Source of the DNA: an uncultured Caryophanales bacterium
Lineage (GTDB): Bacteria > Bacillota_I > Bacilli_A > RF39 > UBA660
Assembly: GCA_946629545.1 (NCBI GenBank)
Contig: CAMOXZ010000004.1
Coordinates: 1-32,920, forward strand
Length of the DNA stretch: 32,920 bases
Direction of reading: 5' to 3'
The translations under genes were made by a program, and so were the position numbers. Shown here piece after piece: positions 24,273 to 29,520 of this stretch; positions within the stretch are counted from its first letter, which is position 1, and every line of letters starts with the position of its first letter. The notes under the pieces were generated by a model. The model searched no databases. It was given only the letters and a program-made list of their open reading frames with translations, and had not been told where the DNA came from.

Positions 24273-24282
24273 GTATTAGCTT
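24251..24282 (-). terminator. terminator after the 220-aa protein gene
   Basis: AAGCTAATACT pairs with AGTGTTAGCTT (one G-U pair) across a 4-nt loop, followed by eight T. It overlaps the stop codon at 24276 and the rlmN promoter. Confidence 0.82.
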
Positions 24283-24938
24283 ATCTTATTAAACTCTTTA
24301 TAATTAACAATTATATTAAGACTCTTACATGAATCTTTTTCTTTACAATAATTATCTAAATTATAATTAATTTCACTAATATACCCATTATTAACAGATA
24401 CCTTAATCTTATTAGGAATCTCATCATAATCAGTTTCTACTCCATTAATCATTTTATTTAATGTATTACTTGATACTAATAAATTATATGCCACTTCTCC
24501 ATTATCATAATTATTCTTAGAATCAATATATGATGAATTAATTATATTATTCATATTAGTTTCCTTCAAAAAACTATAAAACTTAATTGGATTATCTACT
24601 TCTTTCCAATTATCTTCTTTTATATAACTCTTATCATCTCTATTATAATACTCTTTACCATTATATTTATAATAAATAGTATTATACTCTTTATTACCAG
24701 TATAACTATAAGTATCATTATCTAATACTACTTTATATTCAAAAGAATAATTATACTTTTCTAAATTATTAACTACTACTCCAGTAGATTCATTATCTTG
24801 TCCTACATTACCTACACTACCTGTCCTAGCCATAATTGATATTATTGTAAAAAATATTATATAAAATCCAAAGAATAGTACTGCATTACCATAAGGTTTT
24901 TTTCTTAGTTCTTTTATGTATTCAATTAACTTTTTCAT
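24276..24938 (-). CDS. Membrane-anchored protein, unknown function
   Basis: I do not recognise this 220-aa protein. Residues about 19-36 (AVLFFGFYIIFFTIISIM) are a membrane helix following a basic N-terminus. The rest is extracytoplasmic and rich in Tyr, Asn and Asp, with repeated short patterns such as YNYSFEYKVVLDNDTYSY and KEYNTIYYKYNGKEYYNRDD, suggesting a beta-rich fold. Two Cys near the end (YCKEKDSCKS) are close together. It overlaps the fmt stop by 4 bp (TGAATGA context), so it is translationally coupled to fmt, and a terminator follows directly. Its link with formyl-Met-tRNA is positional only. Confidence 0.75.
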   Translation of the reverse strand: MKKLIEYIKELRKKPYGNAVLFFGFYIIFFTIISIMARTGSVGNVGQDNESTGVVVNNLEKYNYSFEYKVVLDNDTYSYTGNKEYNTIYYKYNGKEYYNRDDKSYIKEDNWKEVDNPIKFYSFLKETNMNNIINSSYIDSKNNYDNGEVAYNLLVSSNTLNKMINGVETDYDEIPNKIKVSVNNGYISEINYNLDNYCKEKDSCKSLNIIVNYKEFNKIS

Positions 24939-25861
24939 TCAAACACCTTACCTATTAATTTATCTTTACCAATACCATTAACATAACTATTAGCATCCAT
25001 TAACTTTTTACCAAATGGTTTAATCTTAGTAAGAATAATAGATCCATCACTAGTCTTTACAACAATACCTTCTTTAGTACAATCAACTATTTCTCCACAA
25101 GTACCAGAATAATTATCACTACCTATTTTACTTTCAAGTATCTTCATTTCTTCACCAAAAAGAATACTATTACTACTAGGTATAGGAGATAAACCTCTAA
25201 TTAAATTAAATACTTCTCTACTAGTTTTATTAAAATCAATATGTTCTTCTTCTCTTTTTATATTATAAGCATACTCTACTTTAGATTCATCTTGTTTTAA
25301 TCTATCATTAGTACCATCAATTATACTAGGTAAAGTTTCAAGTAATAAATCTCTTCCTAAGATACTTAATTTATCATGTACACTTTCTAAATTATCACTA
25401 TCTAGTATTTCTATTTCATCTTGAGAAATAATATCTCCAGTATCCATACCAACATCCATATACATAATAGTAATACCAGTCTTTTTATCGCCATTAATAA
25501 TAGACCAATGTATTGGAGCTCCTCCCCTATATTTAGGAAGAAGTGATGCATGTACATTAATACAACCATACTTAGGATAATCTAATATCTCTTTAGGAAT
25601 AATTTGTCCATAAGCACAAGTAATAATAATATCTGGATTAAGATTCAAAATATCTTGATAATCTTCTCTTATTCTAATAGGTTGAATAACTGGAATATTA
25701 TATTTTAAAGCTAACTCTTTAACAGGTGTATTTCTTAATTCTAAGTGTCTTCCTACTCTTTTATCAGGTTGACTGACTACACCAACAACATCATAATTAT
25801 CAATTAAACCCTGAAGCACAGGAACAGAAAAATCTGGTGTACCCATGAAAACAACTTTCAT
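24935..25861 (-). CDS. fmt: Methionyl-tRNA formyltransferase (Fmt)
   Basis: Fmt transfers a formyl group from 10-formyltetrahydrofolate to Met-tRNA(fMet) for translation initiation. The 308-aa protein has the N-terminal KVVFMGTPDFSVPVLQGL, the active-site segment NVHASLLPKYRGGAPIHWSI with its Asn-His pair, MDVGMDTGDII, and a C-terminal OB-like tRNA-binding domain (FVVKTSDGSIILTKIKP type). The start at 25861 lies 4 nt after the stop of the preceding gene. It is usually found with def and rsmB; here priA lies further upstream, and def is not in the window. Confidence 0.96.
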   Translation of the reverse strand: MKVVFMGTPDFSVPVLQGLIDNYDVVGVVSQPDKRVGRHLELRNTPVKELALKYNIPVIQPIRIREDYQDILNLNPDIIITCAYGQIIPKEILDYPKYGCINVHASLLPKYRGGAPIHWSIINGDKKTGITIMYMDVGMDTGDIISQDEIEILDSDNLESVHDKLSILGRDLLLETLPSIIDGTNDRLKQDESKVEYAYNIKREEEHIDFNKTSREVFNLIRGLSPIPSSNSILFGEEMKILESKIGSDNYSGTCGEIVDCTKEGIVVKTSDGSIILTKIKPFGKKLMDANSYVNGIGKDKLIGKVFE

Positions 25862-25865
25862 TTAA

Positions 25866-27038
25866 TCATCCCCTCAAAATATTAATAATCATTATAATAA
25901 CCCCTAAACTAATAAATATAGCTCCTAATAATAAGAATAATGAAACACTTCCATACTTATTATTAAAATCATCAGTTACTTCTTTTTCTTTTTTCTTTAA
26001 CTTTTCTTCTTCTTTTTGAATTTTTCTTTTTTCTTCTTCAATATCTATATAAGGATCTAATTCTAATACTTTTAAATCATCAATAGAAATAAACTCATTA
26101 TGCTCCAAATTATTATATTTAGGACTTAACATTCTATCAATAATCTCATATATATCATTACTATCTCTTAAGAAATCTTCTTCTTTAGCATCCTTACTAA
26201 ATATAATATTTCTTTTTACAAGTAATAAACTAATCTTTTCCTTATCCCTATGTAATAGATTATACTCATCTTCTACTAAGTCTAATATATATTTCTTATC
26301 TTCTTCTTTAAAAGAATTATTATTCATAAACCTTTTCAAGTGTCTATTAATTTCAGTACATTCACTATGCAAACAATTATCTTTTCTAATTCCTTTACCA
26401 AAAACTTCTTCATTAAATAATAACTTGTAGAAAAATAAAGGTGCATAACTAGAATAATAACATCCCATTACTAAATCATCTGTGAAATATACATCTTTTA
26501 TATTAAAATCTTTATTGATTACACTAGAGCAATCATACTTATCAAATATAGCATTTACTTTATCAAATCTATCATAATAATTCTCATAAACTTCTGGAGT
26601 AAATCCATTTTTCTTAATACTATCCACATAAATAGAATTAAATCCATGCATAAAATATCCATTTCTAATATATTTATCATAGACATGTTTAATAATCATT
26701 TCTTTTGATTCTATCTTTTTAGTATCTTCAATATTAAACTTAGTAATTAAGGTACTACAAATTAGTTTATTAATACCAAACTTAATACTTTCAAAATTAT
26801 CTAATTTACGATAAAGCTTTTCTACTTGGTCTAAATAATCATCAAATAAGAATTCATCATCAACAATTATTTTATATTTATACAATGCATCATAAAAAAT
26901 ATAAAGTGCAGCTTCATTTCCAATATGAATAAAAGAATCAGTTAAATGATCACTTTTCTTATTAAAGTATCTTTCATTATTTCTAATTTCTTTTATCATT
27001 CTTATAACACTAGTTTTAATGAAATATTCTTCTAACAC
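25866..27038 (-). CDS. Tail-anchored protein with ADP-ribosyltransferase-like motifs, function unknown
   Basis: This 390-aa protein is not in a family I can name. Residues 1-330 look cytoplasmic; a Lys/Glu coiled coil follows (about 334-355), then a C-terminal membrane helix (about 366-386), so it is tail-anchored. Around residues 129-199, FMHGFNSIYVDSIKKNGFTP and later VYFTDDLVMGCYYSSYA resemble the H-G...I...G and VYFT...YA motifs of ART-fold enzymes (ADP-ribosyltransferases). I see no certain catalytic Glu. The GTG start at 27038 has AGGAGGTG 6 nt upstream. Neighbours are fmt downstream and a 65-aa membrane protein upstream. Confidence 0.7.
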   Translation of the reverse strand: MLEEYFIKTSVIRMIKEIRNNERYFNKKSDHLTDSFIHIGNEAALYIFYDALYKYKIIVDDEFLFDDYLDQVEKLYRKLDNFESIKFGINKLICSTLITKFNIEDTKKIESKEMIIKHVYDKYIRNGYFMHGFNSIYVDSIKKNGFTPEVYENYYDRFDKVNAIFDKYDCSSVINKDFNIKDVYFTDDLVMGCYYSSYAPLFFYKLLFNEEVFGKGIRKDNCLHSECTEINRHLKRFMNNNSFKEEDKKYILDLVEDEYNLLHRDKEKISLLLVKRNIIFSKDAKEEDFLRDSNDIYEIIDRMLSPKYNNLEHNEFISIDDLKVLELDPYIDIEEEKRKIQKEEEKLKKKEKEVTDDFNNKYGSVSLFLLLGAIFISLGVIIMIINILRG

Positions 27039-27071
27039 TTTATCACCTCCTATGACTAAAGTTTACTTATT

Positions 27072-27269
27072 TTATTTATTAATATACATATATATAAAAT
27101 ATGCTGAACCTACTAATATAATAGCTCCTATAATTAATAGAATTACTCTAACTGCAGGATTATTACTATCCCAATACATATCTTTTTTAGTAGAAGATTC
27201 TTCCATTAATTTTTCAAAATCTTCTCTATTCTTTTTATTAATTTCTAATTCTTCATTTTCATCATTCAT
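27072..27269 (-). CDS. 65-aa small membrane protein, unknown
   Basis: MNDENEELEINKKNREDFEK starts a charged, probably helical, cytoplasmic half with many Glu, Lys and Asn. One membrane helix follows at about residues 39-60 (VRVILLIIGAIILVGSAYFIYMY). I place the start at 27269, 6 nt after AGAGGT; the ORF-track ATG at 27275 abuts the ribosome site. It lies between priA and the tail-anchored protein gene on the same strand, separated by 33-36 nt, and may be co-transcribed. Confidence 0.65.
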   Translation of the reverse strand: MNDENEELEINKKNREDFEKLMEESSTKKDMYWDSNNPAVRVILLIIGAIILVGSAYFIYMYINK

Positions 27270-27305: not shown

Positions 27306-29465
27306 TTATATCATTTGACTAGGATTAAAATCTATATCTATCTTTATTTTATTATTAGTTAAATAATGATCTATAACTTTAGAAAGAATTAAATATAAAT
27401 TATCTTCTTTCTTATATTTTAAAATTATATTATATCTAAAAACATTATTCATTTTAAATAAACTAGAACTACTAGGTCCAAGTATTATAGTAGAAGTTAA
27501 ATTTCTTTCTAAACTATTCTTAATTTTTAAAGCTTCCCCTAGTATATAAGAAGCATCTTTTCCACTAACTCTTATATTACAAATATAATAATATGGAGGA
27601 TACTTTAAACTTCTTCTAATCATCATTTCTTGTTTATAGAAAGATACATAATCATGATTCTTACATAGATTTATTGCATAATGTTCTGGATTATATGTTT
27701 GAATAATAACAGAACCTTCTTTTAAAGAACGACCAGATCTACCCGCAACTTGACTAAGTAATGAGAATGTATTTTCACTACTTCTAAAATCAGGAATATT
27801 TAATGATGTATCAGCATTAATTACTCCTACTAAAGTTACATTAGAGAAATCTAATCCTTTAGCAACCATCTGAGTACCAAGAAGTATATCATATTTACCT
27901 TCTCTAAAATCATCAATCATCTTCTCATGCATACCTTTTTTACTTGTAGTATCATAATCCATTCTAAGTACTCTACTCTCAGGAAATAATTTATTTAATT
28001 CTTCTTCAATCTTTTGAGTACCTACACCTAAATTATTTAAAGATTTTTCTTTACATTCAGGACAAGTATCAAATACTTTTTCACCATGGCCACAATAATG
28101 ACATCTTAGAGTATTACTACTCTTATGATAAGTTAATGTAATATCACAATTAGGACATTTAAATGTATATCCACAATTCTTACATGTTACAAAACTAGAA
28201 TAACCTCTTCTATTTAATAATAGAATTACTTGTTCATTCTTCTCTAATCTACTACGTATAGCATCAACTAATTCATTAGAAAAATGTCCTTTTATTTTTC
28301 TAATTTCTTTATTCATATCAATTATATTAACTAGAGGCAATTCTTTACCATTTACTCTATGTGGTAAAGTAAGTAACTTATAAACACCTTTTTCCGCTCT
28401 AGCCATCGATTCTAAAGAAGGTGTAGCACTTCCAAGTAATACACTACAATTATGATATTTACTTCTCAAAATAGCTATATCTCTAGCATGGTATCTTGGA
28501 GATGGATCACTTTGCTTATATGAGTCACTATGCTCTTCATCAATAATAATTATTCCTATATTATCAAGTGGAGCAAATATAGCACTTCTAGCACCTATTA
28601 CTATACTAGCTTCTCCTCTACTAATTCTTCTATATTCATCATACTTTTCTCCATCACTTAATCCAGAATGAATAGCCGCAATTTTTTTACCAAATCTTTT
28701 CTCAAATCTCTCAATCATCTGTGGAGTTAAACTAATTTCTGGAACTAATACAATACTACTCTTACCTAATGATAAATAATAATCTATTATTTCCATATAT
28801 ACTTCAGTTTTACCACTACCAGTAACACCATATAATAAATAAGTATTAATATCACTAATAACACTATCTACTACAGCTTGTTGGTCCTTAGTTAATTTCA
28901 TCTTAGAATTATCTAATTCATCATAACTAACTCTATAATGTTCAGATTTTTCTTCTATTAAAACACCCTTCTTAATAAGTGTATTTAAACTACTAATAGA
29001 TATATCAACTAATTCTTTTCTAAGAACAGGTCCATTCTTTACTAATTCTATTATTTCTTTTTGTTTATCATTTAATTTAATATCTGAATAATTACTATTC
29101 AATTTATAATAAGTATCATATTTAATATTACCAGTACTACCAGCTTTTAATGCTTTAGGTAACATTACTTGATAACAACTAATTAAAGTAGATAAAGTAT
29201 TATCTCTCATTACTTTACCTAATTCTAATAATTCATCATTTAATACTATATCTTTATCAACTACTGAAATAATACTTTTTAATTCTTTAGAAGTACTTGA
29301 ATCATTTTTTATTTCTAATACAAAACCTTCTAAAGTCATTCTACCAAAAGGAACTAATACTCTGATACCAACTTTAATATCTTTTTCTAATTCTTTAGGT
29401 ACACTATAATCAAAAACTTTATCAATAGCTTTAGCACTTAATTCAACTAAAACACCTACTATCAA
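27306..29465 (-). CDS. priA: Primosomal protein N', replication restart helicase (PriA)
   Basis: PriA binds stalled forks and loads the replicative helicase at them. The 719-aa protein has the N-terminal DNA-binding domain (VGVLVELSAKAIDKVFDYSV), a superfamily 2 helicase core (YGVTGSGKTEVYMEI, IIIDEEHSDSYKQ, GSATPSLES, LLGTQMVAKGLDF, QVAGRSGR), and the zinc-binding Cys cluster (CKNCGYTFKCPNCDITL and CHYCG, CPECK). I choose the TTG at 29465 as start, with GGAGGTG 5 nt upstream; the ORF-track extension has no ribosome site and runs into the promoter and terminator. Confidence 0.95.
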   Translation of the reverse strand: MIVGVLVELSAKAIDKVFDYSVPKELEKDIKVGIRVLVPFGRMTLEGFVLEIKNDSSTSKELKSIISVVDKDIVLNDELLELGKVMRDNTLSTLISCYQVMLPKALKAGSTGNIKYDTYYKLNSNYSDIKLNDKQKEIIELVKNGPVLRKELVDISISSLNTLIKKGVLIEEKSEHYRVSYDELDNSKMKLTKDQQAVVDSVISDINTYLLYGVTGSGKTEVYMEIIDYYLSLGKSSIVLVPEISLTPQMIERFEKRFGKKIAAIHSGLSDGEKYDEYRRISRGEASIVIGARSAIFAPLDNIGIIIIDEEHSDSYKQSDPSPRYHARDIAILRSKYHNCSVLLGSATPSLESMARAEKGVYKLLTLPHRVNGKELPLVNIIDMNKEIRKIKGHFSNELVDAIRSRLEKNEQVILLLNRRGYSSFVTCKNCGYTFKCPNCDITLTYHKSSNTLRCHYCGHGEKVFDTCPECKEKSLNNLGVGTQKIEEELNKLFPESRVLRMDYDTTSKKGMHEKMIDDFREGKYDILLGTQMVAKGLDFSNVTLVGVINADTSLNIPDFRSSENTFSLLSQVAGRSGRSLKEGSVIIQTYNPEHYAINLCKNHDYVSFYKQEMMIRRSLKYPPYYYICNIRVSGKDASYILGEALKIKNSLERNLTSTIILGPSSSSLFKMNNVFRYNIILKYKKEDNLYLILSKVIDHYLTNNKIKIDIDFNPSQMI

Positions 29466-29487
29466 AGTATCACCTCCATATATATTT

Positions 29488-29496
29488 ATTATATCA
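29488..29496 (-). promoter_or_regulatory. extended -10 promoter of priA
   Basis: TGATATAAT on the minus strand, directly after the T run of the rseP terminator, 22 nt before the TTG start. Confidence 0.55.
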
Positions 29497-29520
29497 AAAA
29501 AAGAAAGCAAATGCTTTCTT
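29496..29520 (-). terminator. terminator after rseP
   Basis: AAGAAAGC-ATTT-GCTTTCTT is a perfect 8-bp stem followed by a T run on the minus strand. It overlaps the rseP stop codon. Confidence 0.8.

What the first reader, a model, noticed from the sequence alone, without database searches (positions are those of the whole stretch)
25866..27038. Tail-anchored protein with ADP-ribosyltransferase-like motifs
FMHGFNSIYVDSIKKNGF and, about 53 residues later, VYFTDDLVMGCYYSSYA resemble the first two motifs of ART-fold enzymes. The C-terminus is a coiled coil plus a membrane helix, so the domain would be tethered to the inner membrane face. I see no certain catalytic Glu, so the enzyme may be inactive or the match misleading. 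An undescribed membrane-bound ART in a core region would be notable.
Basis: inference. Interest (0 to 1): 0.55.

Follow-up and report, generated by a model that had tools for sequence, protein, structure and literature searches.

The report
Membrane-tethered ADP-ribosyltransferase-like protein, probably non-catalytic
A gene always wedged between two housekeeping genes in a group of uncultured gut bacteria makes an undescribed membrane-anchored protein that looks like a distant, probably non-catalytic cousin of the enzymes that attach ADP-ribose to other molecules.

Summary
The gene (minus strand, 25866-27038, GTG start, 390 aa; here 'X') has both quoted motifs, a C-terminal coiled coil and one membrane helix. 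Orthologues occur in 31 of 36 genomes of the genus and 56 of 291 of the family, and are nearly absent outside it. The syntenic ones lie between priA and fmt and are all tail-anchored. No Pfam, NCBIfam, PHROG, PADLOC or PDB sequence family matches.

The ART reading is supported but not proven. AlphaFold2 gives a confident core (pLDDT 92) with strands in ART order. Foldseek gives no significant hit, yet 31 of the 50 best PDB matches are ART folds (KptA, PARP14/15, DarT1). Motif 1 matches a KptA profile at E=3e-6 (best control 0.03). Motif 2 aligns in register, not significantly; motif 3 does not match.

The active site is not conserved. The window protein reads H131-Y184-D321; Y and E vary freely among orthologues and H was lost at least seven times. 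X is most likely a pseudo-ART or ligand/partner-binding protein at the membrane. Soluble paralogues all keep H. A missed 65-aa tail-anchored protein (27072-27269) directly precedes X in most loci. Human tail-anchored PARP16 has the same layout.

The parts
25866..27038 (-). X: 390-aa tail-anchored ART-like protein (GTG start)
27043..27050 (-). Shine-Dalgarno GGAGGTGA of X
   Evidence: same sequence before the start in many orthologues
26664..27038 (-). N-terminal all-helical domain, residues 1-125
   Evidence: AlphaFold2 model
26049..26663 (-). ART-like core, residues 126-330
   Evidence: AlphaFold2 core model pLDDT 91.9; Foldseek; profile match
26601..26660 (-). Motif 1, residues 127-146 (GYFMHGFNSIYVDSIKKNGF): first strand with H131 and the following helix
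   Evidence: hhalign to KptA E=3e-6
26439..26492 (-). Motif 2, residues 183-200 (VYFTDDLVMGCYYSSYAP); Y184 at the ART Tyr position, Y195 at the stacking-Tyr position (placement by comparison with PARP from general knowledge)
   Evidence: register agrees with DUF3990 but not significant
26247..26438 (-). Helical insert between motif 2 and the third strand, residues 201-264
   Evidence: secondary structure; insert relative to PARP/KptA inferred
26049..26087 (-). Last strand region, residues 318-330; D321 sits where the ART Glu would be, column D/E/N/Q/K/S in the family
   Evidence: placement inferred from the model
25950..26042 (-). Coiled-coil linker, residues 333-363
25875..25949 (-). C-terminal transmembrane tail anchor, residues 364-388
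27072..27269 (-). Y: 65-aa tail-anchored protein directly upstream of X, between priA and X
   Evidence: sequence; same-position homologues upstream of X in at least 40 of 65 loci; no Pfam match
24935..25861 (-). fmt, methionyl-tRNA formyltransferase, 4 bases after X; probably co-transcribed
27306..29510 (-). priA, upstream flank of the Y-X unit

Best explanation
X is a divergent ADP-ribosyltransferase-like protein held on the inner face of the cytoplasmic membrane by a C-terminal tail anchor: helical domain, then ART-like core, then coiled coil, then membrane helix. Its catalytic triad is not maintained, so the function shared by the family is most likely not ADP-ribosyl transfer. The remnant NAD pocket would bind a ligand (NAD, ADP-ribose or an RNA/nucleotide end) or a protein partner, and X would act as a membrane-bound sensor or scaffold together with the small tail-anchored protein Y encoded just before it. 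Shown: the anatomy, the tail anchor in all syntenic orthologues, the fixed priA-(Y)-X-fmt position, purifying selection, the lack of triad conservation, and the profile match of motif 1 to KptA. Inferred: the ART fold as such, ligand binding, pairing with Y, and co-transcription with fmt.
For: Confident AlphaFold2 models, pLDDT 86 full-length and 91.9 for the core, with strands at 128-133 (H131), 183-186, 269-275, 311-313 and 322-327, the ART order. Foldseek: 22 and 31 of the 50 best PDB matches are ART folds from several families, KptA/Tpt1, PARP10/14/15 and DarT1. hhalign: core profile against a KptA NAD-lobe profile (86 sequences) E=7.8e-5, motif 1 alone 3e-6; best control 0.016 (full core) and 0.03 (motif 1), reversed KptA 0.68. 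Triad columns: H in 63 of 74, Tyr and Glu positions variable; H lost in 11 of 65 syntenic orthologues with at least 7 changes on the tree, and in 0 of 9 paralogues. Tail anchor in 65 of 65 syntenic orthologues against 1 of 9 paralogues. Synteny. Y upstream.
Against: No Foldseek hit in the PDB better than E 0.85 and all TM-scores below 0.5. The significant profile match covers only 24-48 columns. Motif 2 is not significant and motif 3 gives nothing. Most members keep H131 and Y195, and human mono-ARTs with H-Y-Y or H-Y-L are active (PMC9189837), so loss of Glu alone does not show inactivity. There is no experiment on any member.
Confidence: 0.5

Rival explanations
1. X is an active, non-canonical mono-ADP-ribosyltransferase working like PARP10 or PARP16 (H-Y-other triad, substrate-assisted), modifying proteins or RNA at the membrane.
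For: The window protein keeps H131, Y184 and Y195. H-Y-E occurs in 7 of 74 members, including the 61%-identical orthologue L003 and the paralogues L065/L066, which have a GxGIYY motif. Tail-anchored human PARP16 with H-Y-Y is active. Two soluble paralogues sit beside a Nudix hydrolase gene.
Against: Residue 184 is Y, T, S, F, D, A, C or G among orthologues of one genus, and H131 is lost independently at least seven times in the syntenic set. H-Y-E is scattered: seven members need six changes on the tree.
Confidence: 0.2
2. The core is not an ART fold; H131-G132 and YFTDD are chance look-alikes in an unrelated alpha/beta family.
For: No significant Foldseek or HMM hit to any ART family. The third motif is missing. 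The coordinates could not be superposed here.
Against: Excess of ART folds from several families among the weak hits, a motif-1 profile E-value four orders of magnitude better than controls, and correct register of motif 2 with DUF3990.
Confidence: 0.2
3. X and Y form a toxin-antitoxin-like pair, with Y as a small membrane partner that restrains an ART-like toxin.
For: A small conserved gene lies directly upstream in many loci. ART-fold toxins are common in bacteria (general knowledge).
Against: Vertically inherited at one core locus, under purifying selection with no conserved catalytic residues, and Y is missing from about a third of the loci that have X.
Confidence: 0.07

Closest known systems
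Human PARP16/ARTD15 (tail-anchored mono-ART; PMC3372510, PMC10450202)
   Same: Helical extension, ART domain and C-terminal membrane helix in the same order; cytosolic face; no catalytic Glu (H-Y-Y).
   Different: No detectable sequence relation; X has a helical insert between motif 2 and the third strand, a coiled-coil linker and a non-conserved Tyr position; X is bacterial and not shown to be active.
KptA/Tpt1 RNA 2'-phosphotransferase (PF01885)
   Same: Best profile match: HG-motif strand plus helix ending in G-I/L/F; top ART hit in Foldseek.
   Different: X lacks the N-terminal RNA-lobe motifs (LRH, GHS) and the Arg-His-Arg-Arg tetrad; it is not hit by PF01885.
DarT and DUF3990 ART families (PF14487, PF13151)
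   Same: DarT1 is among the Foldseek hits; DUF3990 motif 2 aligns in register.
   Different: No significant profile match; no conserved catalytic Glu; tail anchor.
LRRC9-type predicted pseudoART family (PMC7955679)
   Same: A predicted ART-like family with divergent active site, judged most likely pseudoenzymes.
   Different: Eukaryotic, embedded between leucine-rich repeats; unrelated context.

Membership tests
ART superfamily (fold) | Split beta-sheet ART fold | tested here: inconclusive
   AF2 strand order fits; ART folds dominate the weak Foldseek hits but none is significant and TM-scores are below 0.5
ART superfamily (fold) | Motif 1 (H or R on first strand, then helix, then G-hydrophobic) | tested here: met
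   hhalign to KptA E=3e-6, best control 0.03; H131 in 63 of 74
ART superfamily (fold) | Motif 2 (Y or STS on second strand) | tested here: inconclusive
   Register right, E=0.045 with DUF3990, similar to controls; Tyr position variable
H-Y-E ARTs (PARP-like), active | Conserved H-Y-E triad | tested here: not met
   Window is H-Y-D; only 7 of 74 members are H-Y-E
PARP (PF00644) | HMM match | tested here: not met
   No Pfam hit at E up to 10 for X; genome search with PF00644 found nothing, but its controls were silent too
KptA/Tpt1 (PF01885) | HMM match and Arg-His-Arg-Arg tetrad with N-terminal RNA lobe | tested here: not met
   No PF01885 hit; LRH and GHS motifs absent from X by reading the sequence; tetrad as in PMC6333775
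Tail-anchored membrane protein | Single C-terminal TM helix close to the end, no N-terminal signal or TM | tested here: met
   Hydropathy in 65 of 65 syntenic orthologues
Tail-anchored membrane protein | Membrane localisation with the N-terminus inside | not testable with these tools
   Needs fractionation and protease protection

The most novel reading that the evidence does not exclude
A bacterial, housekeeping-locus counterpart of PARP16: a tail-anchored ART-like enzyme or NAD/ADP-ribose sensor, paired with a second small tail-anchored protein, acting at the membrane next to the initiator-tRNA formylation gene and inherited vertically, not as a toxin.
Probability: 0.2. Interest if true: 0.75.

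Novelty: new variant of a known kind. Interest (0 to 1): 0.48.

Why it matters
Bacterial ART-fold proteins are known mostly as toxins, phage or toxin-antitoxin effectors, and KptA. A membrane-anchored, vertically inherited ART-like protein in a core operon, with a decaying active site, soluble paralogues and a small membrane partner, would be a new place to look for endogenous NAD/ADP-ribose signalling or for ART folds reused as binding domains. The family has no entry in the libraries searched here.

Tried and rejected
Pfam, NCBIfam, PHROG, PADLOC and PDB sequence searches with X, with the family alignments and with distant paralogues: no credible hit. Phage origin: no tblastn hit in phages and no relatives in IMG/VR for X or paralogue alignments. 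Membership in KptA or PARP: rejected on defining residues and HMMs. X as a replacement of peptide deformylase, which I recall at this position in Bacillus: rejected, def is elsewhere in the genome, and X-less relatives have priA directly before fmt. BFVD hits, the best an uncharacterised Terrestrivirus protein at E 0.015, gave no interpretable function. Globin hits in Foldseek are taken as chance helical matches. The first hhalign run was in global mode by mistake and was repeated locally. The first genome-contig scan with X alone found nothing; an alignment query found 18 named MAG loci.

Full report
What is there. The finding is a 390-codon gene on the minus strand, 25866-27038, here called X. 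It starts with GTG behind a strong Shine-Dalgarno sequence that is conserved among orthologues. Its neighbours on the same strand are uppS, cdsA, a site-2 protease (M50), priA, X, fmt, an unknown 220-aa membrane protein, rlmN, a PP2C phosphatase and a PASTA kinase. X ends 4 bases before fmt. Named relatives are MAGs of uncultured Bacilli/Erysipelotrichaceae, several of them from deer, sheep and rabbit gut.

Family. Orthologues occur in 31 of 36 same-genus genomes and 56 of 291 genomes of the same family. In a class-wide sample of 395 genomes only family members gave strong matches. In the loci examined the orthologues lie between priA and fmt. In X-less relatives where priA precedes fmt, the two genes abut (L248, L250, L254, L260), so the insert was gained or lost as a unit. 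Nine more distant paralogues (L036, L064-L067, L069-L072) lie elsewhere in their genomes; eight of nine lack the membrane helix, and they form a separate side of the tree (94/95 support).

Anatomy. AlphaFold2 with 27 sequences gives pLDDT 86 for the whole protein, and 91.9 for residues 104-333 with 74 sequences. There is an all-helical N-terminal domain (1-125). The core has strands at 128-133, 183-186, 269-275, 311-313 and 322-327, and an inserted helical bundle (201-264). A single helix 333-389 follows, its last 25 residues strongly hydrophobic. The tail anchor is present in all 65 syntenic orthologues.

Is it an ART? HMM libraries and PDB sequence searches are silent. Foldseek against the PDB gives no significant hit. 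However, 22 of the 50 best hits of the full model and 31 of the 50 best hits of the core are ART folds, from KptA/Tpt1, PARP10, PARP14, PARP15 and DarT1; many of these are repeated entries of the same proteins, so the independent evidence is a handful of families. Profile-profile comparison was done with controls: 13 unrelated families from the same loci, their reversed forms, and three deeper families. The core matches a deep KptA NAD-lobe profile with single-target E=7.8e-5, and motif 1 alone with 3e-6. The best control was 0.016 for the full core and 0.03 for motif 1; reversed KptA gave 0.68. Motif 2 aligns in the expected register with DUF3990 (E=0.045), no better than controls; the region of the third motif matches nothing. 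I put the ART-like fold at about 0.75-0.8.

Is it an enzyme? The columns that align with the ART His, Tyr and Glu are residues 131, 184 and 321. The Glu column is placed from the model's last strand and is therefore inferred. The window has H-Y-D. Across 74 members H is kept in 63, Y184 is replaced by T, S, F, D, A, G, E and others even within the genus, and 321 is D, E, N, Q, K or S; H-Y-E occurs in 7. On the tree H is lost with at least seven forced changes, always in the membrane-anchored syntenic set, while all nine paralogues keep it. H-Y-E members need six changes. In human PARPs, loss of His goes with inactivity (PARP9, PARP13), whereas loss of Glu alone leaves mono-ART activity (PARP16 H-Y-Y, PARP14/15 H-Y-L; PMC9189837). 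So the shared function probably does not need catalysis, although H-containing members, the window's included, could still bind NAD or ADP-ribose. X is under purifying selection (dN/dS about 0.27).

A partner. Between priA and X lies a 65-codon gene Y (27072-27269, minus strand) with its own ribosome-binding site and a C-terminal membrane helix. Same-position homologues sharing a ...LM..SS...D.YWD..N... motif precede X in at least 40 of 65 loci; Pfam has nothing for it. X and Y therefore look like a two-gene unit of tail-anchored proteins inserted between priA and fmt. Their interaction is inferred.

Comparison. The closest parallel in layout is human PARP16: helical extension, ART, C-terminal membrane helix, experimentally tail-anchored with the catalytic domain in the cytosol (PMC3372510; PMC10450202). 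This is likeness of architecture, not shown membership. A literature search for a bacterial tail-anchored ART domain found no paper with all terms. X fails the defining residues of KptA (Arg-His-Arg-Arg tetrad, PMC6333775) and the H-Y-E triad. It is best described as a divergent ART-like family, probably pseudo-ART.

Noticed in passing
window 27072-27269 (-): Undetected 65-aa tail-anchored protein Y with its own ribosome-binding site, conserved upstream of X in most loci.
   Followed up: partly
window 24276-24938 (-): 220-aa protein of unknown family, with an N-terminal membrane helix in its homologues, between fmt and rlmN and conserved in many relatives at 25-47% identity; no Pfam, NCBIfam or credible PHROG match.
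   Followed up: partly
L151 5026-5466 (-), L156 4845-5294 (-): Nudix hydrolase genes (Nudix box read by eye) directly upstream of two soluble paralogues of X (L067/L072), possibly linked to ADP-ribose or nucleotide metabolism.
   Followed up: no
L065 1081-2310 (-), L066 1185-2888 (+): Paralogues with a complete H-Y-E pattern and a GxGIYY motif 2; the best candidates for an active enzyme in this superfamily.
   Followed up: partly
L064 1184-3016 (+): 611-aa paralogue with an extra C-terminal domain of unknown family after the ART-like core.
   Followed up: no
L055 (G590:C5:5500-6570): Homologue whose match holds one in-frame TGA in the search listing; could be an error or a broken copy.
   Followed up: no
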